A stretch of DNA of 64,000 nucleotides from Arion vulgaris (lineage: Eukaryota > Mollusca > Gastropoda > Stylommatophora > Arionidae): positions 30,483,647-30,547,646 of the forward strand of contig CM036758.1 in assembly GCA_020796225.1 (NCBI GenBank). The letters run 5' to 3'. The stretch's first letter is position 1. Each line of letters opens with the position of its first letter. Both the position numbers and the translations under genes were made by a program. The notes below the pieces were generated by a model. It had not been told where the DNA came from, did no database searches, and saw only the letters and a program-made list of their open reading frames with translations. This document shows, in pieces, positions 9,938 through 48,318 of this stretch.

Positions 9938-10224
9938 TCTGTAAAATAATTGTTACAATTATAATACATAGCTTCGTTACTTTGTAAACATCACGTGACA
10001 AGTTAACAAGTCTCTCCATGTACATCACGTGACAAATTAACAAGACACTTAATCCTGATAATAACACAAGGGACTTGAGATTATGGGTGTATATAACATT
10101 TATTTCAGAAGGGGGGTGATGAAGTGGCACCAAAAAGAATTAACAAAAAATTGTGTATGTTATAGTCCTGATCTAGACCTGAATGTTTTAGTTTTGTTCT
10201 AGTTTTCTTTGTTATATGCACGGA
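9938..10224 (-). promoter_or_regulatory. TLR spacer: terminator side of B, promoter of A
   Basis: A 287-bp spacer, almost identical to 13211-13497. On the minus strand an AATAAA (10104-10099) lies 121 bp after the stop of copy B. Upstream of the ATG of copy A are two E-boxes CACGTG (9992-9997 and 10026-10031), each followed by ACAA.TTAACAAG, 34 bp apart. A weak AT-rich TATA-like stretch (TATTATAAT) lies about 20-30 bp before the ATG. Confidence 0.6.
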
Positions 10225-13210: not shown

Positions 13211-13497
13211 TCTGTAAAATAATTGTTACAATTATAATACATAGCTTCGTTACTTTGTAAACATCACGTGACAAGTTAACAAGTCTCTCCATGTACATCA
13301 CGTGACAAATTAACAAGACACTTAATCCTGATAATAACACAAGGGACTTGAGATTATGGGTGTATATAACATTTATTTCAGAAGGGGGGTGATGAAGTGG
13401 CACCAAAAAGAATTAACAAAAAATTGTGTATGTTATAGTCCTGATCTAGACCTGAATGTTTTAGTTTTGTTCTAGTTTTCTTTGTTATATGCACGGA
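13211..13497 (-). promoter_or_regulatory. TLR spacer: terminator side of C, promoter of B
   Basis: A 287-bp spacer. AATAAA on the minus strand at 13377-13372 lies 121 bp after the stop of copy C. Two CACGTG E-boxes lie at 13265-13270 and 13299-13304 upstream of the copy B ATG, with the same 34-bp phasing as in 9938-10224. A TATATA stretch lies near 13363. Transcripts must start and end within under 290 bp between genes. Confidence 0.6.
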
Positions 13498-16485: not shown

Positions 16486-16650
16486 TCTGTAAAATAATCG
16501 TTACAAATATAATACATAGCTTCGTTACTTTAAACATCACGTGACAAGTTAACAAGTCACTCCATGCACACCACGTGACAATAACAAGACACTTAATCCT
16601 GATATTGACACAAGAAAAGCAACTTGAGATCATGGGTGTTCACATACATC
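16486..16650 (-). promoter_or_regulatory. Upstream region of TLR copy C, end of the tandem unit
   Basis: Similarity to the other spacers continues to about 16650 and then stops, which sets the right edge of the array. The paired E-boxes are kept (CACGTG at 16538-16543 and 16572-16577). The copy C TSS is not identifiable. Confidence 0.55.
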
Positions 16651-26600: not shown

Positions 26601-26612
26601 GTATATTGTTTT

Positions 26613-27735
26613 TCCCCAGGTGAGTGATGGAATTGTCTGTCCCCAGGTGAGTGATGGAATAGTCTGTCCCCAGGTGAGTGATGGAATTGTCTGTCCCCAG
26701 GTGAGTGATGGAATTGTCTGTCCCCAGGTGAGTGATGGAATTGTCTGTCCCCAGGTGAGTGATGGAATTGTCTGTCCCCAGGTGAGTGATGGAATTGTCT
26801 GTCCCCAGGTGCGTGATGGAATTGTCTGTCCCCAGGTGAGTGATGGAATTGTCTGTCCCCAGGTGAGTGATGGAATTGTCTGTCCCCAGGTGAGTGATGG
26901 AATTGTCTGTCCCCAGGTGAGTGATGGAATTGTCTGTCCCCAGGTGAGTGATGGAATTGTCTGTCCCCAGGTGAGTGATGGAATTGTCTGTCCCCAGGTG
27001 AGTGATGGAATTGTCTGTCCCCAGGTGAGTGATGGAATTGTCTGTCCCCAGGTGAGTGATGGAATTGGCTGTCCCCAGGTGCGTGATGGAATTGTCTGTC
27101 CCCAGGTGAGTGATGGAATTGTCTGTCCCCAGGTGAGTGATGGAATTGTCTGTCCCCAGGTGAGTGATGGAATTGTCTGTCCCCAGGTGAGTGATGGAAT
27201 TGTCTGTCCCCAGGTGAGTGATGGAATTGTCTGTCCCCAGGTGCGTGATGGAATTGTCTGTCCCCAGGTGAGTGATGGAATTGTCTGTCCCCAGGTGCGT
27301 GATGGAATTGTCTGTCCCCAGGTGAGTGATGGAATTGTCTGTCCCCAGGTGCGTGATGGAATTGTCTGTCCCCAGGTGAGTGATGGAATTGTCTGTCCCC
27401 AGGTGAGTGATGGAATTGTCTGTCCCCAGGTGAGTGATGGAATTGTCTGTCCCTCGGTAGCGTAAAATGGAATTGTCGGGGTCCATCCAGGTGAGTGATG
27501 GTATATTCTGTCTCATTTGTGTGGTCTGATATTGTCTATCACTTATTGGTGAGTGATGGAATTGTCTGTCCCCAGGTGCGTGATGGAATTGTCTGTCCCC
27601 AGGTGAGTGATGGAATTGTCTGTCCCCAGGTGAGTGATGGAATTGTCTGTCCCCAGGTGAGTGATGGAATTGTCTGTCCCCAGGTGAGTGATGGAATTGT
27701 CTGTCCCCAGGTGAGTGATGGAATTGGCTGTCCAC
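26613..27735. repeat. 27-bp minisatellite in which every junction is a consensus 5' splice site
   Basis: About 38 units of GTGAGTGATGGAATTGTCTG + TCCCCAG, nearly all identical. Each boundary reads CAG|GTGAGT, the perfect vertebrate/invertebrate splice-donor consensus. A minority have GTGCGT. A diverged interruption lies at 27452-27560. Because 27 is divisible by 3 there are long open frames on both strands (VSDGIVCPQ and NSITHLGTD repeats) that I do not regard as genes. A single unexpanded relative is present at 39617-39725. Confidence 0.97.
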
Positions 27736-29902: not shown

Positions 29903-30057
29903 CTATTCGTCCGAAGGTAACACGTTGACCGTAAACTCTCCAATAACGTTTCCGGGTGGATAGTAGTTAACCACTACTATTGACCTTCCATCTTTCGCCT
30001 GTGACCTTCCGACCCCGATCTCCGTGGAGTTGCGCCAGACCATCTGAGAGAAATGAC
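29903..30057 (-). CDS. CAP gene exon 5 (terminal)
   Basis: The acceptor reads TCTCTCTCATAAACAG, with the exon starting at 30057. It encodes HFSQMVWRNSTEIGVGRS, then VVVNYYPPGN, and stops at TAG 29905-29903. It contains the CAP signature His and the IGVG strand. No Met opens it, so Met-based ORF calling misses it. A 14-15-bp array lies just upstream in the intron. Confidence 0.88.
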
Positions 30058-33000
30058 CTGTTTATGAGAGAGAGATGTTAGGTTAAGTAAGATTACATAG
30101 AGACATCACGGAGAGACATCACAGAGACAGACATCACAGACAGACATCCCAGAGAGAGACATCCCAGAGACAGACATCACAGACATACATCCCAGAGAGA
30201 CACATCCCATAGAGACATCACAGAGAGACATCACCGAGAGAGACATCACAGAGAGAGACATCACCGAGAGAGAGACATCACAGAGAGACATCACAGAAAG
30301 AGATATCACAGAAAGAGACATCACAGAGAGAGGCATCCATCACAGAGAGAGACATCACAGAGAGAGACATCACCGAGAGACATCACAAAAGAGACATCAC
30401 AGAGAGAGACATCACAGACATCACAGAGAGACATCACAGAGAGACACCAAAGAGAGACATCACAGAGACAGACATCACCGACAGACATCACACAGACAGA
30501 CATCACACAGACAGACATCACACAGACAGACATCACAGACAGACATCACACAGACAGACATCACAGACAGACATCACACAGACAGACATCACAGACAGAC
30601 ATCACAGACAGACATCACACAACCAATCTGAAACAAATCTTATGTCTCGGTACTACATCATACCAAACCTTGGTTACACACGCGCACACACACGAACGCA
30701 CAGACGCACGCACACTTATACACCAACTCATAAGGACACCACCATACCTCTGAAATGGGAAACGGTAAGGGCACTGATAATAAGGAAAATAAGCCTTCAC
30801 GCAAAAAATTAGTCATAAGTGTCATAAAAGGCGCCCTGACTAAGCCCAAATTTAGAACGGACGAAGACAGAAGAAGATTAGAACCCATTGACTTTCTTGA
30901 ACTACGTTTAGTAGTAACCCTGTTGTGTGCACCCCTCATACAATATCTCTCATACAATATCTCTCATACAATATCTCTCATACAATATCTCTAATACAAT
31001 ATCTCTCATACAATATCTCTCATACAATGTCTCTCATACAATATCTCTCATACAATATCTCTCATACAATATCTCTCATACAATGTCTCTCATACAATAT
31101 CTCTCATACAATATCTCTCATACAATATCTCTCATACAATGTCTCTCATACAATATCTCTCATACAATATCTCTCATACAATCTCTCTCATACAATATCT
31201 CTCATACAATATCTCTCATACAATATCTCTCATACAATATCTCTCATACAATATCTCTCATACAATATCTCTCATACAATATCTCTCATACAATATCTCT
31301 CATACAATATCTCTAATACAATATCTCTCATACAATATCTCTCATACAATATCTCTCATACAATATCTCTCATACAATATCTCTCATACAATTCTCTCAT
31401 CAATATCTCTCATACAATATCTCTCATACAATATCTCTCATACAATATCTCTCATACAATATCTCTCATACAATATCTCTCATACAATATCTCTCATACA
31501 ATATCTCTCATACAATATCTCTCATACAATATCTCTAATGTCTCTCATACAACATCTCTCATACAATATCTCTCATACAATATCTCTCATACAATGTCTC
31601 TCATACAATATCTCTCATACAATATCTCTCATACAATATCTCTCATACAATGTCTCTCATACAATATCTCTCATACAATATCTCTCATACAATATCTCTA
31701 ATGTCTCTCATACAACATCTCTCATACAATATCTCTCATACAATATCTCTCATACAATATCTCTCATACAATATCTCTCATACAATATCTCTCATACAAT
31801 ATCTCTCATACAATATCTCTCATACAATATCTCTCATACAATATCTCTCATACAATGTCTCTCATACAATATCTCTCATACAATATCTCTAATGTCTCTC
31901 ATACAACATCTCTCATACAATATCTCTCATACAATATCTCTAATGTCTCTCATACAATATCTCTCATACAATATCTCTCATACAATATCTCTCATACAAT
32001 ATCTCTCATACAATATCTCTCATACAATATCTCTCATACAATATCTCTCATACAATATCTCTCATACAATGTCTCTCATACAATATCTCTAATGTCTCTC
32101 ATACAATATCTCTCATACAATGTCTCTCATACAATATCTCTCATACAATATCTCTCATACAATATCTCTCATACAATATCTCTCATACAATATCTCTCAT
32201 ACAATGTCTCTCATACAATATCTCTCATACAATATCTCTCATACAATGTCTCTCATACAATATCTCTCATACAATATCTCTCATACAATGTCTCTCATAC
32301 AATATCTCTCATACAATGTCTCTCATACAATATCTCTCTTTACAATGTCTCTAATGTCTCTCATACAACATCTCTCTACAATATCTCTCATACAATATCT
32401 CTCATACAATATCTCTCATACAATATCTCTCATACAATATCTCTCATACAATATCTCTCATACAATATCTCTCATACAATATCTCTCATACAATATCTCT
32501 CATACAATGTCTCTCATACAATATCTCTCATACAATATCTCTAATGTCTCTCATACAACATCTCTCATACAATATCTCTCATACAATATCTCTCATACAA
32601 TGTCTCTCATACAATATCTCTCATACAATATCTCTCATACAATATCTCTCATACAATGTCTCTCATACAATATCTCTCATACAATATCTCTCATACAATA
32701 TCTCTAATGTCTCTCATACAACATCTCTCATACAATATCTCTCATACAATATCTCTCATACAATATCTCTCATACAATATCTCTCATCAAATATTCTCAT
32801 ACAATATCTCTCTACAATATCTCTCATACAATATCTCTCATACAATATCTCTCATACAATGTCTCCTACATACTCTCATACAATATCTCTATCTCTCTAT
32901 GAACTAAGGCATCTCTAATAAGAAAATCCTCACAAAATTATTCTAATGTCTCATAAAGCCTCTGATACAAATTTCGCGAAGACAAGAATTAACCATTGAC

Positions 33001-36000
33001 TTTCTTGACTACAATATCTCTCATACAATATCTCTCATACAATATCTCTCATACAATGTCTCTCATACAATATCTCTCATACAATATCTCTCATACAATA
33101 TCTCTAATGTCTCTCATACAATATCTCTCATACAATATCTCTCATACAATATCTCTCATACAATATCTCTCATACAATATCTCTCATACAATATCTCTCA
33201 TACAATATCTCTCATACAATATCTCTCATACAATATCTCTCATACAATATCTCTCATACAATGTCTCTCATACAATATCTCTCATACAATATCTCTATAA
33301 TTCTCTCATACAATCATCTCTCATACAATATCTCTCATACAATATCTCTCATACAATATCTCTCATACAATATCTCTCATACAATATCTCTCATACAATA
33401 TCTCTCATACAATATCTCTCATACAATATCTCTCATACAATATCTCTCATACAATATCTCTCATACAATTTCTCTCATACAATATCTCTCATACAATATC
33501 TCTCATACAATATCTCTCATACAATATCTCTCATACAATTTCTCTCATACAATATCTCTCATACAATTTCTCTCATACAATATCTCTCATACAATATCTC
33601 TCATACAATATCTCTAATACAATATCTCTCATACAATATCTCTCATACAATATCTCTCATACAATATCTCTCATACAATATCTCTCATACAATATCTCTC
33701 ATACAATGTCTCTCATACAATATCTCTCATACAATGTTCTCATAAAATTCCATACAATGTCTCTCATACAATATCTCTCATACAATATCTCTCATACAAT
33801 ATCTCTCATACAATATCTCTCATACAATGTCTCTCATACAATGTCTCTCATACAATATCTCTCATACAATATCTCTCATACAATATCTCTCATACAATAT
33901 CTCTCATACAATGTTTCGAAAGCTCAATGGGCAGATTGTGGTATGAGCGGGTGTCATCTATTGAGATTTTTGAGTTTCAAAATCTTGCTTGGATCTACTG
34001 TCTTGTACATGTGGATGTTCCCTAGAGTGAAAGAACTAACATGTTTACATCAACAGCCCGGATTGCGTGGGAGTAAGCGATGGATAAGTGGATGTCATGT
34101 AATGTCCCCACGACCACCTTGTGGATGTAAACACTAAAATTGAGATTGAATTTATTCCGCTTTTTGAGGAGTTTGCAATTACATGTTGTACAGGCAGAAA
34201 TAGGTGCCTGAGGGAAGGAAGGAGTGGGTGGGGGAGGGGGGGATTTGTTTAATCAGTGAGCTTCTGAAGACATCAGTATGCATGTACTTTGACATATGTT
34301 GGGGAAGACCTGCGGATCTGACTGGGGTGGTATGATATCAGTTCAGTTATGTTTCATTGACCTCCTCTTTCTTCATGTCTCAGCCTTCTCTCTCTTCATC
34401 TCTCAACCTCTCTTCATCTCTCAACCTCCTCTCTCTTCATCTCTCAACCTCTCTTCATCTCTCAACCTCCTCTCTCTTCATCTCTCAACCTCTCTTCATC
34501 TCTCAACCTCCTCTCTCTTCATCTCTCAACCTCCTCTCTCTTCATCTCTCAACCTCCTCTCTCTTCATCTCTCAACCTCCTCTCTCTTCATCTCTCAACC
34601 TCCTCTCTCTTCATCTCTCAACCTCCTGTCCCTTCATCTCTCAATCTCCTCTCTCTTCATCTCTCAACCTCCTGTCCCTTCATCTCTCAACCTCCTGTCC
34701 CTTCATATCTCAATCTCCTCTCTCTTCGTGTCTCAGCCTTCTCTCCCTTCCTCTCATAGCCTACTCTTTGAACATTCTTTATGTACCTCCTCTCCACATA
34801 CTTCAGTAAAGATACTACTCTCCCAACCTAATCTCACCTAGTCATCTCTCAAACTTCTCCTTTAACCTCATATTTTATCTACCTGCAGTAAAGACTCTCT
34901 CACTACTCTCCCAACCTGATCTCACCTAGTCATCTCTCAAACTTCTCCTCTAACCTCATATTTTATCTACCTGCAGTAAAGACTCTCTCACTACTCTCAC
35001 AACCTGATCTCACCTAGTCATCTCTCAAACTTCTCCTCTGACCTCATATTTTATCTACCTGCAGTAAAGACTCTCTCACTACTCTCCCAACCTAATCTCA
35101 CCTAGTCATCTCTCAAACTTCTCCTCTAACCTCATATTTTATCTACCTGCAGTAAAGACTCTCTCACTACTCTCCCAACCTAATCTCACCTAGTCATCTC
35201 TCAAACTTCTCCTCTAACCTCATATTTTATCTACCTGCAGTAAAGACTCTCTCACTACTCTCCCAACCTGATCTCACCTAGTCATCTCTCAAACTTCTCC
35301 TCTAACCTCATATTTTATCTACCTGCAGTAAAGACTCTCTCACTACTCTCACAACCTGATCTCACCTAGTCATCTCTCAAACTTCTCCTCTGACCTCATA
35401 TTTTATCTACCTGCAGTAAAGACTCTCTCACTACTCTCACAACCTGATCTCACCTAGTCATCTCTCAAATTTCTCCTTTAACCTCATATTTTATCTACCT
35501 GCAGTAAAGACTCTCTCACTACTCTCACAACCTGATCTCACCTAGTCATCTCTCAAACTTCTCCTCTGACCTCATATTTTATCTACCTGCAGTAAAGACT
35601 CTCTCACTACTCTTACAACCTGATCTCACCTAGTCATCTCTCAAATTTCTCCTTTAACCTCATATTTTATCTACCTGCAGTAAAGACTCTCTCACTACTC
35701 TCACAACCTGATCTCACCTAGTCATCTCTCAAACTTCTCCTTTAACCTCATATTTTATCTACCTGCAGTAAAGACTCTCTCACTACTCTCACAACCTGAT
35801 CTCACCTAGTCATCTCTCAAACTTCTCCTTTAACCTCATATTTTATCTACCTGCAGTAAAGACTCTCTCACTACTCTCACAACCTAATCTCACCTAGTCA
35901 TCTCTCAAATTTCTCCTTTAACCTCATATTTTATCTACCTGCAGTAAAGACTCTCTCACTACTCTCACAACCTGATCTCACCTAGTCATCTCTCAAATTT

Positions 36001-39000
36001 CTCCTTTAACCTCATATTTTATCTACCTGCAGTAAAGACTCTCTCACTACTCTCACAACCTGATCTCACCTAGTCATCTCTCAAATTTCTCCTTTAACCT
36101 CATATTTTATCTACCTGCAGTAAAGACTCTCTCACTACTCTCACAACCTGATCTCACCTAGTCATCTCTCAAATTTCTCCTTTAACCTCATATTTTATCT
36201 ACCTGCAGTAAAGACTCTCTCACTACTCTCACAACCTGATCTCACCTAGTCATCTCTCAAATTTCTCCTTTAACCTCATATTTTATCTACCTGCAGTAAA
36301 GACTCTCTCACTACTCTCACAACCTGATCTCACCTAGTCATCTCTCAAATTTCTCCTTTAACCTCATATTTTATCTACCTGCAGTAAAGACTCTCTCACT
36401 ACTCTCACAACCTGATCTCACCTAGTCATCTCTCAAATTTCTCCTTTAACCTCATATTTTATCTACCTGCAGTAAAGACTCTCTCACTACTCTCACAACC
36501 TGATCTCACCTAGTCATCTCTCAAATTTCTCCTTTAACCTCATATTTTATCTACCTGCAGTAAAGACTCTCTCACTACTCTCACAACCTGATCTCACCTA
36601 GTCATCTCTCAAATTTCTCCTTTAACCTCATATTTTATCTACCTGCAGTAAAGACTCTCTCACTACTCTCACAACCTGATCTCACCTAGTCATCTCTCAA
36701 ATTTCTCCTTTAACCTCATATTTTATCTACCTGCAGTAAAGACTCTCTCACTACTCTCACAACCTGATCTCACCTAGTCATCTCTCAAATTTCTCCTTTA
36801 ACCTCATATTTTATCTACCTGCAGTAAGTACTGTCGGCTCCACCCCAAACTCGTGATTCCTGACCTCACTGTACCACTGGTCACATAATTCTTGAGCTGT
36901 ATTTGAGGATCAACAAAACAGTATTGAGTTTATTCAACATTGTGTCAGTCACTTAACTCATATAATACAACAAGCCACATGACAAGCCGTTGAGGAAGTA
37001 CTATATTCCACTAACAAACAACTTCACATGCTAAAGTGTTTTGTTATTAAAAAATTATTTCAATGATCAATTTGTTGCTATTTGGTATGTAATTTGTTGC
37101 TATTTGGTATGTAATTTGTTGCTAGTTGGTATATAATTTGTTGCTATTTGGTATGTAATTTGTTGCTATTTGGTATATAATTTGTTGCTATTTGGTATGT
37201 AATTTGTTGCTATTTGGTATGTCATTTGTTGCTATTTGGTATGTCATTTGTTGCTATTTGGTATGTGATTTGTTGCTATTTGGTATGTAATTTGTTGCTA
37301 TTTGATATGTAATTTGTTGACTAACGCATCACATTAATTTGTAAAGTACGACTTTCATTTCTGTACAATTTAAATTGTGAAAATTGTGATCTGATGTTCA
37401 ACATCTTAGATCCCCGAAATTTCAATTAAAAAGTCCCGGAAAACTATGATTTCAGTGTGTGCATTCTTCTTCTACATCCTCTCCTCGAGGATGATAATTC
37501 AACAGTTGTTCTCCAATGTTCTCTGTCTTCGGCTGTTTTTTGTAGTAAATCGAACTAACTACTGCATCATACCTTCTACATGAACCGTGACTGATTGATA
37601 GGAACATCATCATTGCACTTCGTCCGAGTGGTTACCGGGATCCAAATTTGGGGTGTAAAGAATAGAACCACTGTAACCTACCACGCATGTCGTAAGAGGC
37701 GACTAAGGAGGTGTGGCTGAAATCGGATGCACATGTCCTAAACGTGTAGAAGTCTATTCGTTTAGGGGCCTACAAACCAATGTGCAACGTATACACGTTC
37801 TTGGCAAAGATCAAACATATCACAAAGAGTGATTAAAATTGGTCGTAAAGAACGAACGCAAACAAGGCGAAGAAGATCATTTGCACTTCGGTGAGTAACC
37901 ATGCATGCTCCGATCTCTTTCTTACACAGAAAGATCTCAGCGGCAGTGCACGAGCTCCACAGCACCGGCGAGAGTCCCCAATGTAATTTTGAAAATGGCG
38001 AAAATATTTTGAAGAAATTTGTTTTTGAATCTTTCAAATGAATTCTGTCCAGTCAGCTGCTTTCCAGCCTGCTCTTTTCGATTTTAAACTGTCAAAGGTT
38101 CTTATACGTGCTTAACTTGAACATAGGATCTACTTGTTATCATCCGTCTCTGATAGGACTAGGAGCTCGATCTCACCTACACTGAGATTAAAGATCTCTG
38201 ACAAAATATCCCGATGGTTCCACGAGGGACCGAACCGAGTAACTTTGGAACGGGAGGCGAGCATCTAGCCTCTAGGCCACAGAGACCCACCAACCTCTGT
38301 GATGGCATGTCAAGTCTCCTTCTACTTCCTTTTACACTATCTCCATTTTTGTTACTGGCGGAGCCAAGATATCAAACATTTGTAACGATGTCAATGTCTT
38401 CATTATTTATGGTAACTTTTATAATATCTCCATTGGTGTTACTGGCAGAGCCAAGATATCAAACATTTGTAACGATGTCAATGTCTTCATTATTTATGGT
38501 AACTTTTATAATATCTCCATTGGTGTTACTGGCAGAGCCAAGATATCAAACATTTGTAACAATGGTAATGTCTTCATTATTTATGGTAACTTTTATAATA
38601 TCTCCATTGGTGTTACTGGCAGAGCCAAGATATCAAACATTTGTAACGATGTCAATGTCTTCATTATTTATGGTAACTTTTATAATATCTCCATTTTGTT
38701 ACTGGCGAGCCAAGATATCAAACATTTGTAACGATGTCAATGTCTTCATTATTTATGGTAACTTTTATAATATCTCCATTGGTGTTACTGGCGGAGCCAA
38801 GATATCAAACATTTGTAACGATGTCAATGTCTTCATTATTTATGGTAACTTTTATAATATCTCCATTGGTGTTACTGGCAGAGCCAAGATATCAAACATT
38901 TGTAACGATGTCAATGTCTTCATTATTTATGGTAACTTTTATAATATCTCCATTGGTGTTACTGGCAGAGCCAAGATATCAAACATTTGTAACGATGTCA

Positions 39001-42000
39001 ATGTCTTCATTATTTACGGTAATTTTTATAATATCTCCATTTTTGTTACTGGCGGAGCCAAGATATCAAACATTTGTAACGATGTCAATGTCTTCATTAT
39101 TTACGGTAATTTTTATAATATCTCCATTTTTGTTACTGGCGGAGCCAAGATATCAAACATTTGTAACGATGTCAATGTCTTCATTATTTATGGTAACTTT
39201 TATAATATCTCCATTGGTGTTACTGGCGGAGCCAAGATATCAAACATTTGTAACGATGTCAATGTCTTCATTATTTATGGTAACTTTTATAATATCTCCA
39301 TTGGTGTTACTGGCGGAGCCAAGATATCAAACATTTGTAACGATGTCAATGTCTTCATTATTCATGGTGATTTTTATTTGGACATTTTGCTTTGTCAGGG
39401 GATATAATCCTAGTTTTTCTTTGTTTTCAGAAAAATGGTTATTATCTTCCCTGTTTGTTTTGAACAGACAAATGTTCCACTTCCTTGACTCTATTTGGAA
39501 TAGAGCTGTGTCGTCACCTCTGTAACTTATTTCCCTGTCTTGTAGGTTGGCATACTTTAGCTCTGACGGCATGCATATGATCGATCTGTTCTGAACTATT
39601 TTCTATTGTCTTTCCCTCAGGTAGATGATGGAATTAGTTGTCTGTCTACTTGTGCTGTTATGTGTATGGGTGGAGTTTTTACTTGCGTTCCAGGGCCAGA
39701 TGAGTCGCCCTTGTTGTGTTATATTAGCCCTTCATTTCACCCACACATTACTCCACTCCTACTCTTCCTTTATTTCACCCATACGTTACTCCACTCCTAC
39801 TCTTCTTTTATTTCACCCACACGTTACTCCACTCCTACTCTTCTTTTATTTCACCCACACGTTACTCCACTCCTACTCTTCTTTTATTTCACCCACACGT
39901 TACTCCACTCCTACTCTTCTTTTATTTCACCCACACGTTACTCCACTCCTACTCTTCTTTTATTTCACCCACACGTTACTCCACTCCTACTCTTCTTTTA
40001 TTTCACCCACTTACTCCTCCTACCTTCTTTATTTCCACACTTACTCACTCTACTCTTCTTATTTCACCCCACGTTACTACCTACTCTTCTTTATTTCTCC
40101 CCACACATAACTTCCTCTACTCTTCTTTATTTCACCCCACATTACTTCACTTCATTCTTCTTTACTTCACCCACATTACTCCTCATTCTTCTTACTTACC
40201 ATTACCCTCTCATTCTTCTTTACTTCACCACGCATTACTCCCTCCCACTTTACTTTTACTTCACCCACGCATTACTCACTCTCACTTTACTTTTACTTCA
40301 CCACCATTACTCCACCCCACTTTACTTTTACTTCACCCACCCTTACTCCACTCCCACTTGTGTTTACTTCACCCACACATTACTCCACTCCCACTTTTGT
40401 TTACTTCACCCACACATTACTCCATTCTTTTATTATTCCACCAGCCCTTTATATCACCCATGAACTTACTAGATATTACTCAGCTTTACAATTACTCCGC
40501 CCATCCATTATTCTACACATCCATTACTCCATCCATCCATTACGCCTCCCTGCCATTAATCTGATCTTTCTATACTCCGCCCCCATCTATCTGCACCTAC
40601 CTAAGCTAGTAAAACTCACGTTTGTAGACAGAGTTATTAGAAGTCCACTTCATGGCAATGTTTTCTCCTATTCTGACACCCCTCAGTTTGTAGCCACTGT
40701 GAGACAGATCAGGAACCTGGGCTAGTTCATCAGCCCATCGCTGGGCCATCTCCAACATTTCATCATTCAGCCTAGAGGTTCAGGTCGTTGTTAACCAGGG
40801 AGAAATAAATATTTATGTGATCTTTAGCTAGAGAAATAGAGGTTTATGTGATCTTTAGCTAGAGAGAAATAAAGATGCATGTGATCTTTAGCTAGAGAGA
40901 GAAATAGAGATTTATGTGATCTTTAGCTAGAGAGAGAAATAGAGATTTATGTGATCTTTAGCTAGAGAGAGAAATAGAGATTTATGTGATCTTTAGCTAG
41001 AGAGAGAAATAGAGATTGATGTGATCTTTAGCTAGAGAGAGAAATAGAGATTTATGTGATCTTTAGCTAGAGAGAGAAATAGAGATTTATGTGATCTTTA
41101 GCTAGAGAGAAATAGAGATTTATGTGATCTTTAGCTATAGGGAGAAATAGAAGTTCATGTGATTGTTATCATTAGACATCTGTCGTATGAGAGAGAAAGA
41201 GATTGAGAGAGAGAGAGAGAGAGACATTGAGAGAGAGAGATACATTTCGAAAGACTGTTGGGATGTCAAAGTTCTCCTCAGGACAAGCTATTTGATGATG
41301 ATGATTGATGACACAATACGGAGGACGGTCAAGGTGAGAAAACTGACCCGTTTTGTTGTTTCCTTGATCGCTAAGTACGTCACAGGTTTGAGAGAGAGAT
41401 TATCAGGGAGGAAGACGAGATCAAACAAATTGTAAAGAAGGACATAAATATTAATTAGTTAAAAAATCAGAGGCTATCAGAAAACAAGTACAAAGACAGA
41501 CAGTCGCATAACATGTGTCGAGGATGTGTCGAGGAAATATGTCTCAGAAGAATTATTCGAATTCGTTGGGACCAGAGATCATGCGATGTCCTGGCATCAA
41601 CAATATCAACAAGGAAATGAAACGTTGATCACACCAGAATCTAAAATGATAAAAATAACAGAGCAGTTCACCTATTTAAGTAGCGAAACACGTAATAATA
41701 AAGTACTGTAGTTTTACAAATTACAAAAACAATGACAATATACAGCAACGTTTCGACCAACAAGGCCTTTATCAAGCTAAAATCTTATTTTAACCTCCCT
41801 ATTTAAGTAGCAATTTGATTGCACAGGAAATGTTAAAAGAAATTATGATACGAATTGGCAAAGCAACATCAGCTTTTAAAAGTCTAAATAAAATATGGAA
41901 CTGCAAGTTATATAGTATTAAAACTAAATTACGAATTTTCAATTCAAATGTTGCATCAATTCTCACATATGCCAGCGAGAGTTGGAAAATGACTAAAGAT

Positions 42001-45000
42001 ATAGAAAGCAAGTTGAATGCATTTGAAAATAGATGTCTGCGAAAAATAATGAATATAAAATGGAATGAATTCAGGAGAAGTGATGAAATCAGAGAAATGT
42101 CTGGTCAACCACTAGTGACAACTGTTATAAGAAGAGAAGATGGAGATATGTTGGGCACATCTTGAGGAGAAATGATCAGCGAATATCAAAACAGGCATTG
42201 AAGTGGGATGCAAAGGGTTCAAGAAAGAGAGGTCGACCTAAGGAGACCCTGAAGCGAACTTTGCTGAGAGAGGCAGGAAATATCGGTCTCAGTTCCATGG
42301 AGGAGATTGAACGAGTTGCCCAGAATAGAGCGGTATGTAGAAATTACTTGCAGGCCCTATGTAACGTATAACGGTACGAGAGGAATTATTATTAAATAAA
42401 ACGTTGAGATGGAAGTGATTGGGACATACATTAAGAATGGAAGACTAGGACCAACATGTGGCTTTGAATCAATCTCCCAGGCAAGAATGGTAGGAAGACT
42501 AGGCACCAACATGTGGCTTTGAAATGAATCTGCCAGGCAAGAATGGTAGGGGAAGACTAGGCACCAACATGTGGCTTTGAAATGGAATCTGCCAGGCAAG
42601 AATGGTAGGGGAAGACTGGGCACCAACATGTGGCTTTGAAATGGAATCTGCCAGGCAAGAATGGTAGGGGAAGACTAGCACCAACATGTGGCTTTGAAAT
42701 GGAATCTGCCAGGCAAGAATGGTAGGGGGAAGACTAGGCACCAACATGTGGCTTTGAAATGCAATCTGCCAGGCAAGAATGGTAGGGGGAAGACTAGGCA
42801 CCAACATGTGGCTTTGAAATGGAATCTGCCAGGCAAGAATGGTAGGGGGAAGACTAGGCACCAACATGTGGCTTTGAAATGGAATCTGCCAGGCAAGAAT
42901 GGTAGGGGGAAGACTAGGCACCAACATGTGGCTTTGAAATGGAATCTGCCAGGCAAGAATGGTAGGGGGAAGACTAGGCACCAACATGTGGCTTTGAAAT
43001 GGAATCTGCCAGGCAAGAATGGTAGGGGGAAGACTAGGCACCAACATGTGGCTTTGAAATGCAATCTGCCAGGCAAGAATGGTAGGGGGAAGACTAGGCA
43101 CCAACATGTGGCTTTGAAATGAATCGAGGCAAGAATGGTAGGGGACTGGCACACGGGCGAATGAACTGAGAAGAAGGTGGAAGACTAGAGCACCAACTTT
43201 GGTGAAATCAATCTGCCAGGCAGATGGTAGGGAAAACTAGGCACCCAATGTGGCTTTAATGGAATCTGAGGCAAGAATGGTAGGGGAAGACTAAGACCAA
43301 CATGTAGCTTGAAATGCATCTGCCTAGGCAAGAATGGTAGGAAGACTGATCAACATTGGCTTTGAAATGGAATCTGCCAGGCAAGAATGGTAGGGGGAAG
43401 ACTAGGCACCAACATGTGGCTTTGAAATGCAATCTGCCAGGCAAGAATGGTAAGGGGAAGACTAGACACCAACATGTGGCTTTGAAATGGAATCTGCCAG
43501 GCAAGAATGGTAGGGGGAAGACTAGGCACCAACATGTGGCTTTGAAATGGAATCTGCCAGGCAAGAATGGTAGGGGGAAGACTAGGCACCAACATGTGGC
43601 TTTGAAATGGAATCTGCCAGGCAAGAATGGTAGGGGGAAGACTAGGCACCAACATGTGGCTTTGAAATGAAATCTGCCAGGCAAGAATGGTAGGGGGAAG
43701 ACTAGGCACCAACATGTGGCTTTGAAATGCAATCTGCCAGGCAAGAATGGTAGGGGGAAGACTAGGCACCAACATGTGGCTTTGAAATGGAATCATCCAG
43801 GCAAGAATGGTAGGGGTGACCTAGGGAGACACGGGGACGAACTGTAGACAGAGAAAGTGAAGAGGCAGGAAAGACCTGGAATGAACTAAGCTGGCTTGCT
43901 CAAGGCAGATCTGGTTGGAGGATATTTGTTGATGCCTTATGCTTCAAGGGGACTTGAGAGAAGAAGAAGAAGAAATAAGAAAACAATAGTAGCGATAGCG
44001 TAGTTGTTAGTGCAGTTGCTTCGTCGTCGTTTGGTTCAGGATCCATTCCACAATTAAAGGTTGAAATAATTCCGATCATAATGGTTTCCGTGTCGACCCA
44101 GTCTCATTTGGGTAACAAAGTAACACTGGAAAATAGTTCCGACTGAAGTGATATAATAATATCACGGATAACTTGCTGTTGATCAAAGAAAAATACAGGT
44201 CTAACATCGTATACTCATGGTATATCGGTCTCTGTGACGAGGTGGTCAAACATTTGTCTTGTTTTCCAGGTCTAACATCGTATACTCATGGTATAGAGGT
44301 CTCTGTGACGAGGTGGTCAAACATTTGTCTTGTTTTCCAGGTCTAACATCGTATACTCATGGTATAGAGGTCTCTGTGCAGGTGGTCAAACATTTGTCTT
44401 GTTTTCCAGGTCTAACATCGTATACTCATGGTATAGAGGTCTCTGTGACGAGGTGGTCAAACATTTGTCTTGTTTTCCAGGTCTAACATCGTATACTCAT
44501 GGTATAGAGGTCTCTGTGACGAGGTGGTCAAACATTTGTCTTGTTTTCCAGGTCTAACATCGTATACTCATGGTATAGAGGTCTCTGTGACGAGGTGGTC
44601 AAACATTTGTCTTGTTTTCCAGGTCTAACATCGTATACTCATGGTATAGAGGTCTCTGTGACGAGGTGGTCAAACATTTGTCTTGTTTTCCAGGTCTAAC
44701 ATCGTATACTCATGGTATAGAGGTCTCTGTGACGAGGTGGTCAAACATTTGTCTTGTTTTCCAGGTCTAACATCGTATACTCATGGTATAGAGGTCTCTG
44801 TGACGAGGTGGTCAAACATTTGTTTTAGTTTTCCAGGTCTAACATCGTATACTCATGGTATAGAGGTCTCTGTGACGAGGTGGTCAAACATTTGTTTTAG
44901 TTTTCCAGGTCTAACATCGTATACTCATGGTATGAGTCTCTCTGTGACGAGGTGGTCAAACATTTGTCTTGTTTTCCAGGTCTAACATCGTATACTCATG

Positions 45001-48000
45001 GTATAGAGGTCTCTGTGACGAGGTGGTCAAACATTTGTCTTGTTTTCCAGGTCTAACATCGTATACTCATGGTATAGAGGTCTCTGTGACGAGGTGGTCA
45101 AACATTTGTCTTGTTTTCCAGGTCTAACATCGTATACTCATGGTATAGAGGTCTCTGTGACGAGGTGGTCAAACATTTGTCTTGTTTTCCAGGTCTAACA
45201 TCGTTTACTCATGGTATAGAGGTCTCTGTGACGAGGTGGTCAAACATTTGTCTTGTTTTCCAGGTCTAACATCGTATACTCATGGTATAGAGGTCTCTGT
45301 GACGAGGTGGTCAAACATTTGTCTTGTTTTCCAGGTCTAACATCGTATACTCATGGTATAGGTCTCTGTGCGAGGTGGTCAAACATTTGTCTTGTTTTCC
45401 AGGTCTAACATCGTATACTCATGTTATAGAGGTCTCTGTGACGAGGTGGTCAAACATTTGATTTGTTTTCCAGGTCTAACATCGTATACTCATGGTATAT
45501 CGGTCTCTGTGACGAGGTGGTCAAACATTTGTCTTGTTTTCCAGGTCTAACATCGTATACTCATGGTATATAGGTCTCTGTGACGAGGTGGTCAAACATT
45601 TGTCTTGTTTTCCAGGTCTAACATCGTATACTCATGGTATAGAGGTCTCTGTGGCGAGGTGGTTAAACATTTGTCTTGTTTTCCAGGTCTAACATCGTAT
45701 ACTCATGGTATAGAGGTCTCTGTGACGAGGTGGTCAAACATTTGTCTTGTTTTCCAGGTCTAACATCGTATACTCATGGTATAGAGGTCTCTGTGACGAG
45801 GTGGTCAAACATTTGTCTTGTTTTCCAGGTCTAACATCGTATACTCATGGTATAGAGGTCTCTGTGACGAGGTGGTCAAACATTTGTCTTGTTTTCCAGG
45901 TCTAACATCGTATACTCATGGTATAGAGGTCTCTGTGGCGAGGTGGTCAAACATTTGTCTTGTTTTCCAGGTCTAACATCGTATACTCATGGTATAGAGG
46001 TCTCTGTGACGAGGTGGTCAAACATTTGTCTTGTTTTCCAGGTCTAACATCGTATACTCATGGTATAGAGGTCTCTGTGGCGAGGTGGTCAAACATTTGT
46101 CTTGTTTTCCGGAGATTATGGTTCGTATCCGGTTCATTCAGTTTCCTCGTGGTGGCGTTCTTACCAGTCATTTCTCAGATTATTTCCAGAACTACGGAGT
46201 TTGTGCAATGTGCAATACTCTCGATGGGTGGCATGCCATTTCTGCGGAGAGAGACCATGAAATAAATAGGAAATTCGCCCGAGTAGTTACCGGGGCCCAA
46301 ATTTGGGGTGTAAATAATAGAACCATTGTTACCTGCCACGCATGTCGTAAGAGGCGACTAAGGAGGTTTGAGCTGAAATCGGATGCACATGTCCTAAACG
46401 TGTAGAAGTGAATGCCTTTAGGGACCTGCCAAACCAATGTGCAATGTATACACTTTCTTGGCAAAGATCAAACATATCACAAAGAGTGATTAAAATTGGT
46501 GGTAAAGAACGAACGCAAAGAAGAAGAAGAAATAGGAAATTGAACGTGGATATAGCACAGTGTCATGCTTGCAATAAACAGGAAATATTGATGTCGAAAA
46601 CATATATAACTTAATTTCTACGCACTGATTACTAGTCAATGAATATATAGTACAAGTCATACCTCAACGACGCCCGAGTGGTTACCGGGCCCAAATTTGG
46701 GGTGTAAAGAATAGAACCACTGTTACTGCCATGCATGTCGTAGGAGGCGACTAAGGAGGTTTGGCTGAAATCGGATGCATGTGTCCTAAACGTGTAGAAG
46801 TCTATGCGTTTAGGGCCTACAAAACCAATGTGCAACGTATACACGTTCTTGGCAAAGATCAAACATATAACAAAAGACTGATTAAAATTGGTCGTAAAGA
46901 ACAAACGCAAAGAAGAAAAAGAAGATACCTCAACGAGTAAGCCTTATGTTTGCGCCTGTACTCGCCATGTATCCTCGTCACTTCCTCAGCAAACTCTTGA
47001 GGGCAGAGGTCTCCTAGTTTCTGGGACACACATGTTTCACAAAGAGATAACTATAGATTCGTATTGTCTGTCTTATCTAGTCAACAGCCTACATGTATTG
47101 TCTGTCTTATCTAACCAACAGTCTACATGTATTGTCTGTCTTATCTAACCAACAGCACACATGTATTTTCTGTCTTGTCTAACCAACAGCACACATGTAT
47201 TTTCTGTCTTGTCTAACCAACATCTACATGTTGTCTGTCTTATCTAACCAACAGCCACATGTATTTTCTGTCTTGTCTAACCAACAGCACACATGTATTT
47301 TCTGTCTTGTCTAACCAACATCATACATGTATTGTCTGTCTTACCTAACCAACAACCTACGTGTATGGTCTGTCTTATCTAACCAACAGTTTACATGTAT
47401 TGTCTGTCTTATCTAACCACCAGTCTTCATGTATTGTCTGTCTTATCTTCTTTCTTCTTCTTCTTGTGTTCGTACTTCGCGACCAATTTTATCATTCTGA
47501 TTGTGATATATAATTGATCTTTGACAAGAACTTTTGTTTACGTTGTGCGATTATGCGCCCATGGTGACTAGGCCGTCCACACGATTTTAGCCAGCTGTTT
47601 ATTTACTAGGGTAGCTTGTCCTAGAACGATCCAGGCTGGATCTACGCCTTTACGATCATCTGTTAGCCACATATTAAGGCTTTGTGATCTACGCCAAACA
47701 GGAGTCTACACTGTGCGCCCTTTCTGACAGTGAAGTCGTTTCGGATTGGAAACATTTTTTTTTGGTGGGTCTTTTGGAGCACATAAGCTTGTCCTGGGAC
47801 GGCATCTTACTCGTATAACACACAGTGTAAAGAGAAACAAAAGTACATCAAGGCTTACCCACAGACGGAGGTGAAGAACAAATCACCACACGGAGTGAAG
47901 AAACAAAAGTCTTACCCACACAGACGGAGGTGGAGAAACAAAACGTCTTACCCACACAGACGGAGGTGGAGAAACAAAACGTCTTACCCACGCAGACGGA

Positions 48001-48318
48001 GGTGAAGAAACAAAAAGTTTTACCCACACAGACGGAGGTGAAGAAACAAAAGTTTTACCCACACAGACGAGGTGGAAGAAACAAAAGTTACCACACAGAC
48101 AGAGGTGAAGAAACAAGTTTACCCACCAGACAGAGGTGAAGAAACAAAAGTTTTACCCACACAGACAGAGGTGAAGAAACAAAAAGTTTTACCCACACAG
48201 ACGGAGGTGAAGAAACAAAACGTCTTACCCACACAGACGGAGGTGAAGAAACAAAAAGTCTTACCCACACCGGTGGAGGTCCCTTCTGTAGGAGGTCAAT
48301 GAGTGCGAAGAAGGACAT
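29903..48318 (-). CDS. CAP-superfamily protein, GAPR-1/GLIPR2-like; five exons over 18.4 kb
   Basis: Exons on the minus strand: 48318-48265, 47020-46929, 40771-40620, 36896-36819 and 30057-29903. All boundaries are AG/GT, and the phases agree throughout (0, 2, 1, 1), giving about 176 aa. Conserved CAP pieces come in order: IHGEYRRKHK, AQRWADELA, HS and GENIA, CDQWYSEV, GHFSQMVWRNSTEIGVG, and VVVNYYPPGNV near the end. The size, the lack of a clear signal peptide and the NYYPPGN ending fit the intracellular GAPR-1 (GLIPR2) branch rather than secreted venom allergens. GAPR-1 binds Golgi and other membranes and negatively regulates autophagy in vertebrates; the role here is inferred only. No coding exon is damaged. 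The introns are packed with LINEs, SINEs and at least ten tandem arrays. Exon 1 is the least certain part. Confidence 0.85.
30090..30620. repeat. GACATCACAGAGAGA-type array (CAP intron 4)
   Basis: Units of 12-18 bp built from GACATCACAGAGA and GACATCACACAGACA, ending within 35 bp of the exon 5 acceptor. The apparent minus-strand proteins (MSLSVMSLCDV type) are repeat artefacts. Confidence 0.9.
30621..30754. repeat. (CA)n/(CG)n-rich patch (CAP intron 4)
   Basis: An interrupted CA dinucleotide stretch at 30672-30722, with no other feature. Confidence 0.7.
30755..30935 (+). other. Open frame of unknown nature inside CAP intron 4
   Basis: The plus strand reads MGNGKGTDNKENKPSRKK, then KPKFRTDEDRRRLEPIDFLE, before entering the 14-bp array. 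The composition is protein-like and the start resembles an N-myristoylation site. However, about 35 bp of it (CACTGATAATAAG..TTCACGCAAAAA) also match the inverted CAP 3' UTR near 29780-29815, so a dispersed repeat is likelier. The last 55 bp recur, degraded, at 32975-33010. Confidence 0.25.
30936..33915. repeat. 14-bp satellite, about 3 kb (CAP intron 4)
   Basis: The unit TCTCTCATACAATA is repeated about 200 times, with an ATA/ATG variant (ATATCTCT/ATGTCTCT). At intervals a 9-bp short unit (CTCTAATGT) occurs, for example at 31536, 31699, 31890, 31941 and 32090. The spacings are 163, 191, 51 and 149 bp, always 14n+9. Non-repeat sequence interrupts the array at 32885-33010. All three plus frames are open with the same 14-residue repeat because 14 is not a multiple of 3 and the unit has no stop. 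Confidence 0.97.
33916..34370 (+). pseudogene. Decayed LINE: RNase H scrap and 3' end
   Basis: The plus strand reads RLWYERVSSIEIFEFQNLAW + IYC, matching the VSSKEVPNLQLLMWIYCPGH segment of the LINE family at 49301-49760, 50560-51370 and 52640-53060. 34200-34360 (AATCAGTGAGC..) matches the 3' UTR at 51240-51350. Confidence 0.6.
34371..34745. repeat. 23-bp CT-rich minisatellite (CAP intron 4)
   Basis: About 16 units of CTCTCTTCATCTCTCAACCT with small length changes. Parallel open frames in several registers are artefacts. Confidence 0.92.
34746..36818 (-). repeat. 88-bp minisatellite built on the exon 4 splice donor
   Basis: About 22 units of 88 bp. On the minus strand each reads TTTACTGCAGGTAGATAAAA and then TATGAGG. 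This is the same junction as the true exon 4 end plus donor (CTTACTGCAG|GTAGATAAAA at 36828-36809). The array begins at the donor itself and extends through the intron, so exon 4 is followed by more than 20 near-copies of its own donor. The first, most distal units (34800-34900) are partial. Confidence 0.95.
36819..36896 (-). CDS. CAP gene exon 4
   Basis: A 78-bp exon with acceptor CCTCAAATACAG and donor CTGCAG|GTAGAT. It encodes QELCDQWYSEVRNHEFGVEP, then TVLTA, the helix before the CAP signature. It is phase 1 at both ends, joining exon 3 and exon 5 in frame. Confidence 0.87.
36897..37069. other. CAP intron 3, unique part
   Basis: AT-rich, no feature recognised. Confidence 0.5.
37070..37320. 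repeat. 22-bp tandem array (CAP intron 3)
   Basis: About eleven units of AATTTGTTGCTATTTGGTAT + GT with little variation. Confidence 0.95.
37575..38000 (-). repeat. Repeat R2, split by SINE R1
   Basis: The left part carries the tail (CTGATTGATAGG). The right part carries CTCCGATCTCTTTCTTACAC and GCAGTGCACGAGCTCCACAG. It is interrupted by R1 at 37623-37875. Confidence 0.7.
37623..37875 (+). mobile_element. SINE R1, nested in R2
   Basis: Head TCCGAGTGGTTACCGGG, core CATGTCGTAAGAGGCGACTA, tail GGCGAAGAAG. The flanks ATCATTGCACTTCG (37609-37622) and ATCATTTGCACTTCG (37876-37890) form the target duplication. Confidence 0.85.
38045..38292 (-). repeat. tRNA-derived SINE, family S-D, copy 2
   Basis: On the minus strand the head is TCTGTGGCCTAGAGGCTAG (box A) and CTCGGTTCGGTCCCTCGTGG (box B). 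The body ends with AATCGAAAAGAGCAGGCTGG. It is inverse to the copy at 3006-3248. Confidence 0.8.
38330..39572 (-). pseudogene. LINE RT fragment carrying an 87-bp in-frame tandem amplification
   Basis: The minus-strand frame starts near 39572, passes EKLGLYPLTKQNVQIKITMN and then reads NNEDIDIVTNV.YLGSASN. This is the stretch before the RT C-terminal YLGS motif. From about 39375 down to 38345 the 87-bp coding unit (29 codons) is repeated about 12 times with few changes. The unit ends in a stop on this strand. On the plus strand two frames stay open for up to 397 codons by chance. Confidence 0.8.
39573..39739. repeat. Unexpanded relative of the 27-bp minisatellite
   Basis: TCTTTCCCTCAGGTAGATGA, then TGGAATTAGTTGTCTGTC, then GTTCCAGGGCCAGATGAGTC matches the right edge of the 26.6-27.8 kb array (one monomer plus 27740-27810). 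It is likely the pre-amplification state. Confidence 0.75.
39740..40445. repeat. 38-bp minisatellite (CAP intron 3)
   Basis: About 18 units of ATTTCACCCACACGTTACTC + CACTCCTACTCTTCTTTT. It is regular at 39760-40005, then strongly degraded with indels to 40300, then clearer again. Confidence 0.9.
40446..40619. other. CAP intron 3, exon 3 proximal
   Basis: Short degenerate ATTACTCC-type repeats, then the exon 3 donor GTGAGT (40619-40614 on the minus strand). Confidence 0.5.
40620..40771 (-). CDS. CAP gene exon 3 (core of the CAP domain)
   Basis: A 152-bp exon with acceptor GAACCTCTAG and donor AAAC|GTGAGT. It encodes LNDEMLEMAQRWADELAQ, then the HS and RIGENIAMKW motifs. The Glu of GEN and the following His-containing segment belong to the CAP cavity. 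Its single leading G completes the Arg codon split with exon 2. Confidence 0.92.
40795..41160. repeat. 35-bp tandem array (CAP intron 2, next to the exon 3 acceptor)
   Basis: About ten units of GAGAGAGAAATAGAGATTTA + TGTGATCTTTAGCTA. On the gene strand each unit has TTTCTCTCTCTAG, an acceptor-like tract, a few bases upstream of the real acceptor CCTCTAG. Confidence 0.93.
41163..41330 (+). pseudogene. LINE 3' end with internal (GA)n expansion and (GAT)n tail
   Basis: The plus strand encodes EIERERERDIERER, then ISKDCWDVKVLLRTSYL. It matches the EREIEIPEDCWGGRVLLRTSYL end at 49055-49130. The (GA)n run expanded the Glu-Arg codons. The end is GATGATGATGATTGATGA. Confidence 0.7.
41560..42371 (+). 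pseudogene. RTE-like LINE, RT C-terminal region, split by a PLE fragment
   Basis: 41560-41683 reads up to ITEQFTYLSS. After the insert the frame continues through IGKATSAFKSLNKIWN, KTKLRIFNSNVASILTYASE and NRCLRKIMNIKWNEFRR. A frameshift at about 42160 precedes QALKWDAKGSRKRGRPKETL to the end at 42371. This is the thumb and tail of an RTE/CR1-type ORF2. Confidence 0.85.
41684..41797 (-). mobile_element. 114-bp PLE-derived insertion with hammerhead-like motif
   Basis: CCTATTTAAGTAG at 41671-41683 and 41798-41810 is an exact 13-bp target duplication inside the LINE. The insert consists only of a PLE terminus: CGAAACACGTAATAATAAAG, then the GGTCGAAACGTTGC / AAGGCC motif (minus strand, 41733-41777), then a short tail. 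Confidence 0.85.
42380..43975 (+). pseudogene. LINE C-terminal ORF with a 60-bp in-frame tandem amplification
   Basis: It starts with RWK..GHTLRMED-like codons. About 22 copies of a 60-bp (20-codon) unit follow, encoding ALKWNLPGKNGRGKTRHQHV. The true end of the LINE ORF comes next: EEAGKTWNELSWLAQGRSGW, then RIFVDALCFKG and a stop, then GAAGAAGAAGAAG. A noisy stretch at 43110-43350 breaks the register. The repeat amplified the QALQWNPQGKRKRGRP-type motif of the LINE. Confidence 0.85.
43995..44165 (+). repeat. tRNA-derived SINE related to S-B
   Basis: The head TAGCGTAGTTGTTAGTGCAG (box A) with GGTTCAGGATCC (box B) is followed by GTCGACCCAGTCTCATTTGG, the same central domain as in S-B (GTCGACCCAGCCTCAACTGG). 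The tail differs from S-B. Confidence 0.65.
44185..46107. repeat. 71-bp minisatellite (CAP intron 2)
   Basis: About 27 units, each TTGTCTTGTTTTCCAGGTCT, then AACATCGTATACTCATGGTA, then the rest to 71 bp. On the plus strand TTGTCTTGTTTTCCAG|GT is a good acceptor-like tract, but the host gene runs on the other strand. Unit length is not a multiple of 3, so short frames repeat in several registers. Confidence 0.96.
46108..46275. other. Unassigned
   Basis: Sequence after the array, with R2-like bits (ACTACGGAGTTTGTGCAATG). Its last 12 bases, AAATAGGAAATT (46264-46275), are duplicated at 46530-46541. Confidence 0.4.
46276..46529 (+). mobile_element. SINE R1 (CAP intron 2)
   Basis: Full length, from CGCCCGAGTAGTTACCGGG to GAAGAAG, with the exact 12-bp target duplication AAATAGGAAATT on both sides. 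Confidence 0.9.
46671..46924 (+). mobile_element. SINE R1 inserted at the exon 2 splice donor
   Basis: Full length, CGCCCGAGTGGTTACCGGG to AAAAAGAAG. The exact 12-bp target duplication ATACCTCAACGA lies at 46659-46670 and 46925-46936. On the gene strand the duplicated bases are TCGTTGAG|GTAT, the last 8 bases of exon 2 plus the first 4 of intron 2. The SINE therefore follows the donor at intron position +5. Confidence 0.92.
46929..47020 (-). CDS. CAP gene exon 2
   Basis: A 92-bp exon with acceptor GTGTGTCCCAG and donor TTGAG|GTATCT. It encodes KLGDLCPQEFAEEVTRIHGE, then YRRKHKAYSL, helix 1 of the CAP fold with its His (IHxEYR..H). The last two bases AG join the G of exon 3 as AGG. Donor positions +5 and +6 now come from the SINE tail. 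Confidence 0.88.
47055..47450. repeat. 34-bp tandem array (CAP intron 1)
   Basis: About eleven units of GTCTGTCTTATCTAACCAAC + AGTCTACATGTATT, ending 35 bp from the exon 2 acceptor. Confidence 0.93.
47451..47640 (-). repeat. R1b SINE-like fragment (CAP intron 1)
   Basis: TTCTTCTTCTTCTTGTGTTC (tail), GACCAATTTTATCATTCTG, GACAAGAACTT and TTATTTACTAGGGTAGCTT, in the order seen in the other R1b copies. Confidence 0.65.
47641..47849. other. CAP intron 1, no feature recognised
   Basis: Nothing convincing on either strand. Confidence 0.4.
47850..48264 (-). repeat. 34-35-bp minisatellite built on the exon 1 splice donor
   Basis: About 12 units. On the gene strand each is ACCTCCGTCTGTGTGG|GTAAGACTTTTTGTTTCTTC. 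The first half resembles the last 16 bases of exon 1 (ACCTCCACCGGTGTGG) and the second half is the intron start. The array starts at the exon 1 donor. Confidence 0.93.
48265..48318 (-). CDS. CAP gene exon 1 (probable)
   Basis: ATG at 48318-48316 opens 18 codons (MSFFALIDLLQKGPPPVW) ending at donor TGTGG|GTAAGA, phase 0, matching exon 2. The segment is not conserved in CAP proteins I know. The same frame is open upstream (FTVKVI before the Met), so the true start could lie further up or in another exon. Confidence 0.5.

What the first reader, a model, noticed from the sequence alone, without database searches (positions are those of the whole stretch)
34746..36896. Exon 4 of the CAP gene is followed by about 22 tandem copies of its own splice donor
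Directly visible: the true junction CTTACTGCAG|GTAGATAAAA (36828-36809, minus) is reproduced as TTTACTGCAG|GTAGATAAAA in each 88-bp unit through 2 kb of intron. Donor strength should be nearly equal in all units. Splicing must either always choose the first donor or yield a ladder of 88-bp extensions. 88 is not a multiple of 3, so any other choice shifts the frame. I know of no described gene with such a donor ladder, but I could not search.
Basis: partly seen in the sequence, partly recalled or inferred. Interest (0 to 1): 0.85.

Follow-up and report, generated by a model that had tools for sequence, protein, structure and literature searches.

The report
Snail gene with repeated splice donors
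In a snail gene the signal that ends an exon has been copied about 22 times into the following intron by a tandem repeat, and another exon of the same gene has a similar ladder; such repeats are already known from a human gene and from amphioxus, and known splicing rules predict that the cell mainly uses the first copy.

Summary
An 88-bp minisatellite (34814-36827) begins inside exon 4 of a CAP-family gene (minus strand) and repeats its donor CTGCAG|GTAGATAAAATATGAGG exactly: 23 identical sites, one true and 22 copies, plus a degenerate 24th. The coding sequence is intact: five exons join into a 176-aa GAPR-1-like protein, closest to a land-snail protein. The unit resembles the last 17 nt of exon 4 (14 of 17), so the array grew over the exon/intron boundary. 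The claim of no precedent is wrong: human IFI6/6-16 has a minisatellite giving several splice donors, and amphioxus has boundary minisatellites called 'mirages'. Exon 4 lies between long introns; human minigene work reports that of two identical donors the upstream one wins under exon definition. Any later donor meets a stop codon at once. Verdict: new member of a known kind. Splicing itself was not observed.

The parts
48265..48318 (-). CAP gene, first coding exon (exon 1), MSFFALIDLLQKGPPPVW; donor GTGTGG|GTAAGACTTT
   Evidence: tblastn with six of the 12 homologues; frame-consistent join
47890..48270 (-). Array of about 36 bp (31-36 bp between most sites) starting inside exon 1: second donor ladder, 12 donor-like sites counting the true one; the last (exon would end at 47859) lies just outside the TRF limits. 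Extra donors 1-3 stay in frame (12, 24, 36 aa longer); the other eight end early
   Evidence: TRF; sites, in-silico isoforms and U1 energies
46929..47020 (-). CAP gene exon 2
46659..46936 (-). Dispersed element of about 254 bp (46671-46924) inserted at donor 2, with its two 12-bp target-site copies TCGTTGAGGTAT, each holding the exon 2 end and donor
   Evidence: blastn copies and flanks; limits read by eye
40620..40771 (-). CAP gene exon 3
36819..36896 (-). CAP gene exon 4 (78 nt), donor CTGCAG|GTAGATAAAA
34814..36827 (-). 88-bp minisatellite: donor ladder of the finding, 23 identical donors; units 2-10 identical, 11 of the 12 units 11-22 carry variants
29903..30057 (-). CAP gene exon 5 with stop codon

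Best explanation
A minisatellite straddles the exon 4/intron 4 boundary of an intact GAPR-1-like CAP gene of a heterobranch (probably land) snail. A tandem duplication took in about the last 17 nt of exon 4 and about 70 nt of intron, then spread by unequal exchange or slippage, most recently on the exon side. Because the exon-side copy stays attached to the whole exon, the added copies lie in the intron. Splicing works mainly because exon 4 (78 nt, between introns of 3.7 and 6.8 kb) is recognised by exon definition, which pairs its acceptor with the nearest, first donor. Mistaken use of a later donor meets a stop codon at once and should be removed by nonsense-mediated decay. The ladder at exon 1 has the same anatomy. 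Shown: sequence, coding frame, exon tail in both units, stop codon. Inferred: mode of growth, choice of the first donor, decay.
For: 23 identical donors in 88-bp register. 531-nt CDS over five exons without internal stop, frame kept at all four junctions, CAP domain E=3.4e-19. Both units match the 3' end of their own exon, 14 of 17 and 13 of 16 nt; 1 and 0 of 20000 shuffles of the unit tail score as high. Units 2-10 are identical, whereas 11 of the 12 units 11-22 differ from the reference unit. Introns flanking exon 4 are 3723 and 6761 nt; PMC9225289 reports that with two identical strong donors under exon definition the upstream one was chosen exclusively in its minigenes. Amphioxus mirages are reported not to disturb regular splicing (PMC3087553). 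Later donors read GGT AGA TAA.
Against: No RNA data were available, so use of 36819 rests on protein homology. In a predicted fold of exon 4 plus six units the true donor is less open (0.25 unpaired) than the copies (0.67-0.69), the opposite of what would favour it. A stronger donor-like site lies at +45 in the unit, and 46 of 565 GT sites in intron 4 pair with U1 as well as the true donor or better, itself included. The classical intron-side proximity rule, recounted in PMC9225289, would favour the last donor; and in that study weak identical donors led to exon skipping in the larger exons. That work is human; snail splicing rules were not tested.
Confidence: 0.75

Rival explanations
1. The ladders are used: donors compete, giving a family of transcripts. 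At exon 4 the longer forms contain a stop and lower gene output, perhaps with copy number; at exon 1 the first three extra donors add 12, 24 or 36 residues, as the repeat donors of IFI6 give several mRNAs.
For: IFI6 is reported to use two downstream repeat units as donors (PMC4526556 passage). In ladder 1 the first extra donor has the same U1 energy as the true one and is in frame; if exon 1 is also the first exon of the transcript (not known), it has no upstream acceptor to define it.
Against: Amphioxus mirages are reported to splice regularly (PMC3087553); upstream donors win under exon definition (PMC9225289). The 6 of 12 homologues that show this N-terminal stretch have no 12-aa insert, but they are other species and may lack the ladder.
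Confidence: 0.16
2. Each 88-bp unit is itself a GT...AG mini-intron, so intron 4 is removed in steps (recursive splicing), or a mis-spliced extension is cut out again; every such step gives back the same exon end.
For: Each unit begins GTAGAT and ends CTGCAG, so removing any number of whole units restores the same junction (read).
Against: The unit's acceptor looks poor: pyrimidine content 0.43 (true acceptors 0.48, 0.57, 0.67, 0.71), another AG only 12 nt upstream (true ones 30-59 nt), and no TnAy branch-point match between -8 and -47, although true acceptors 2 and 4 also have few such matches. The exon 1 unit ends in GG and cannot do this.
Confidence: 0.05
3. The array is a chance intronic satellite that merely abuts the exon, or its copy number is an assembly product.
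For: Arrays cover 12521 of the 18416 bp of the gene, so arrays near exons are expected. Copy number was not checked on reads.
Against: Both units hold the exon tail. 143 of 20000 random draws put two or more of eight points inside an array within 12 bp of its edge (cut-off chosen after seeing 6 and 9 bp). Internal variants with a repeated order (units 17-18 like 21-22) look like real repeat turnover.
Confidence: 0.04

Closest known systems
Human IFI6 (6-16, G1P3) splice-donor minisatellite (Turri et al. 1995, NAR 23:1854; paper not held; known here from its title and citing passages)
   Same: A minisatellite repeats a splice donor in tandem next to an exon of an animal gene: a donor ladder.
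   Different: By recall the IFI6 unit is 12 bp; here 88 bp and about 36 bp. In IFI6 three mRNAs are reported; at exon 4 any later donor gives an early stop.
Amphioxus 'mirages' (Adh3, BflGb6, BflGb9; PMC3087553 passages; the Adh3 paper of 2002 is not held)
   Same: Minisatellite-like tandem duplications over intron-exon boundaries, many units with AG/GT signals, units of 10-160 bp, homogenised clusters, regular splicing reported.
   Different: Mollusc, not cephalochordate; 22 further copies of a donor boundary against 6 and 3 units in the two BflGb6 haplotypes (acceptor side) and a duplicate in BflGb9; two ladders in one gene here.
Intron gain by tandem duplication with AGGT (PMC4974935, search listing with start of abstract only)
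   Same: Tandem duplication of a stretch bearing an AG|GT junction.
   Different: No new intron is needed to explain the gene: the copies lie within one intron. Intron positions of relatives were not compared.

Membership tests
Mirage-type boundary minisatellite | Tandem repeat whose unit contains exon and intron sequence from one boundary | tested here: met
   Unit tail matches the last 17 nt of exon 4 (14 of 17) and the last 16 nt of exon 1 (13 of 16); 1 and 0 of 20000 shuffles score as high
Mirage-type boundary minisatellite | Units carry AG/GT splice signals (reported for many, not all, amphioxus units) | tested here: met
   88-bp ladder: CAG|GT in 23 of the 24 sites found. The exon 1 ladder has GG|GT instead
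Mirage-type boundary minisatellite | Length instability between haplotypes | not testable with these tools
   Only one haplotype seen; genome search unanswered five times
Mirage-type boundary minisatellite | Regular splicing persists | not testable with these tools
   No transcripts; the protein reading continues across the junction as in homologues
IFI6-type multiple-donor minisatellite | Several repeat units proven to serve as donors in mRNA | not testable with these tools
   Sequence permits it; no RNA
CAP superfamily, GAPR-1-like | CAP domain in the joined protein, nearest solved structure GAPR-1 | tested here: met
   PF00188 E=3.4e-19, residues 35-157; best PDB match 1smb, GAPR-1, E=3.7e-23, searched with exons 3-5

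The most novel reading that the evidence does not exclude
In this snail lineage boundary minisatellites are a general, independently arisen process, as in amphioxus: introns grow by repeated duplication anchored on their own donor, so that many genes carry donor ladders of 10-30 near-identical sites and depend on exon definition to read the first. This gene, with two ladders and a third donor doubled by an insertion among its four donors, would be a typical example rather than an oddity.
Probability: 0.35. Interest if true: 0.65.

Novelty: new member of a known kind. Interest (0 to 1): 0.45.

Why it matters
It is a natural test of how the spliceosome chooses among many identical donors: 23 identical sites at 88-bp steps, each wrong choice marked by an early stop, in a gene that still encodes a whole protein. 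It carries a phenomenon described in one human gene and in amphioxus into molluscs, and the second ladder in the same gene hints at a repeated way for introns to grow from their donor end.

Tried and rejected
Acceptor-side mirages in the same gene: arrays end 28, 40 and 43 bp from acceptors 3, 2 and 5, but similarity of junction and unit is weak (21, 379 and 27 of 500 shuffles reach the score for acceptors 3, 2 and 5), so none is claimed, though 3 and 5 are borderline. The same test gave nothing at acceptor 4 (371 of 500) or donor 3 (92 of 500).

Donor accessibility by RNA folding points against the first donor and is reported as such. Constraint on the donor copies: no variant falls in the donor part of the exact units, but with about six variable columns this says little; no test was run.

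Other loci: an exact scan of viral contigs for the junction found 0. The genome of the window could not be searched. Of 25 array consensus units examined, 4 hold a site with U1 energy of -9 or stronger: the two ladders, and the arrays at 26605-27733 and 54300-54928, to which I could attach no exon.

Literature: answered searches were. By titles and starts of abstracts no mollusc case appears in the listings; that covers only the held open-licence library, and of the listing I read only passages of PMC8022989 and PMC3862624, which describe none.

Full report
What is there. On the minus strand exon 4 of a CAP gene (36896-36819) ends CTTACTGCAG|GTAGATAAAA, and the junction recurs every 88 bp. TRF gives 34814-36827, 22.9 copies, 98% matches. 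A script counts 23 exact copies of CTGCAGGTAGATAAAATATGAGG, one true and 22 downstream, and a degenerate 24th site 82 bp after the last.

The gene. A search with exons 3-5 gave 12 homologues; tblastn with six of them located the coding exons: 48318-48265, 47020-46929, 40771-40620, 36896-36819 and 30057-29903. They join into 531 nt, 176 aa, no internal stop, with phases 0, 2, 1 and 1. Pfam CAP matches at E=3.4e-19. The nearest solved structure, searched with exons 3-5, is GAPR-1 (1smb, E=3.7e-23). The nearest protein is from Candidula unifasciata (91% identity over 98% of the query), a stylommatophoran land snail. The Gly whose codon spans the exon 4/5 junction, and the next two residues, are invariant in all 13 aligned sequences. 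So the exon end at 36819 is well supported, though without RNA.

How the ladder arose. Compared without gaps, the unit's end and the end of exon 4 agree at 14 of the last 17 positions; 1 of 20000 shuffles of the unit's tail scores as high. The repeat therefore includes exon sequence. Units 2-10 are identical; of units 11-22, 11 of 12 differ from the reference (unit 16 does not); unit 1 differs only at two exonic bases; unit 23 is 82 bp. The simplest account is recent amplification on the exon side. Unit types recur in order (17-18 like 21-22), as in unequal exchange.

A second ladder. Exon 1 ends CCACCGGTGTGG|GTAAGACTTT and is followed at once by the array 47890-48270 (period 36, 31-36 bp between most sites), whose first units end CTCCGTCTGTGTGG. 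There are 12 donor-like sites counting the true one. Of the 11 others, five have the same predicted U1 energy as the true donor (-9.2), five -6.5 and one -5.0 kcal/mol. The first three extra donors keep the frame and the whole protein (188, 200 and 212 aa); the other eight end early (75 or 76 aa). The last 16 nt of exon 1 match the unit at 13 positions (0 of 20000 shuffles).

A doubled third donor. Exon 2 ends TCGTTGAG|GTAT; an element of about 254 bp follows and then TCGTTGAG|GTATGACTTG. The element has five other near-complete copies in the window at 87-92% identity and two partial ones. By eye, matching short repeats flank four of the five, for example AATTTCCTATTT at the copy near 46.5 kb; the fifth lies in a TGA repeat where this cannot be judged. 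The doubled donor is thus most likely a target-site duplication. Three of this gene's four donors are copied, by two different routes.

Chance. Eight junctions against 13 arrays that I listed: two junctions fall inside an array within 12 bp of its edge; 143 of 20000 draws of eight random points do as well. The cut-off was set after seeing the data (6 and 9 bp), and the gene is 68% array, so I give this little weight; the exon tails are the stronger evidence.

How splicing can cope. The donor sites have the same U1 energy (-8.0), and the unit also holds TAG|GTGAGATC at +45 with -9.5; 46 of 565 GT sites in intron 4 are as strong as the true donor or stronger, itself included (U1 end typed from recall; pairing energy is a coarse score). 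Strength cannot pick the first. Exon 4 lies between introns of 3723 and 6761 nt. PMC9225289 (abstract and passages) reports that between long introns the donor nearest the upstream acceptor is preferred, and that with two identical strong donors 52 nt apart the upstream one was used exclusively in minigenes; weak identical donors led to skipping of the larger exons. It also recounts the classical opposite rule across short introns. For exon 4 the first case applies. A later donor reads GGT AGA TAA, a stop; decay of such RNA is inferred. Against this, a predicted fold leaves the first donor less open than the copies (0.25 against 0.67-0.69 unpaired).

Recursive or stepwise removal. A unit is bounded by GT and CAG, so removing whole units would restore the same junction. 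But the unit's acceptor has fewer pyrimidines than the four true ones (0.43 against 0.48-0.71), an AG 12 nt upstream and no TnAy match between -8 and -47. I rate this unlikely.

What is known. [quoted passage not shown] PMC3087553 (passages) describes 'mirages' in amphioxus: boundary minisatellites, donor or acceptor side, many with AG/GT signals, with regular splicing suggested by RT-PCR and Adh3 data. The primary papers of 1995 and 2002 are not held. What remains is a large, clean member in a mollusc and the pair of ladders in one gene; by titles and starts of abstracts I saw no mollusc case in the listings.

Limits. No RNA, no second haplotype, no related genome: the window's genome could not be searched. 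Copy number rests on the assembly.

Noticed in passing
26605-27733, plus strand: 27-bp array; the donor pattern CAGGTRNGT occurs 38 times in the window, all of them here (3.5 expected), and the unit's predicted U1 pairing is the strongest I computed (-13.0). Its right flank is 77% like a single-copy stretch at 39610-39724, which also has an acceptor-like TTTCCCTCAG before it; possibly an acceptor-side boundary repeat, no gene assigned.
   Followed up: partly
46671-46924 and copies near 37.6-37.9, 5.7-6.0, 21.8-22.1, 46.3-46.5 and 58.1-58.3 kb: Dispersed element of about 254 bp ending ACTCGGGCG (or a close variant), flanked at most copies by short target-site duplications; looks like a short retroelement.
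   Followed up: partly
6950-16500, minus strand: Tandem Toll-like receptor genes: one 1000-aa ORF with LRR and TIR domains (13498-16500) and similar neighbouring copies split into shorter ORFs.
   Followed up: no
29903-48318: The CAP gene is 68% tandem array by length; intron 4 is 87% array (arrays listed by hand).
   Followed up: partly
54300-54928, minus strand: 24-bp array with a donor-like AGG|GTAGGTAA in the consensus unit (U1 -11.3), upstream of exon 1; no exon found.
   Followed up: no
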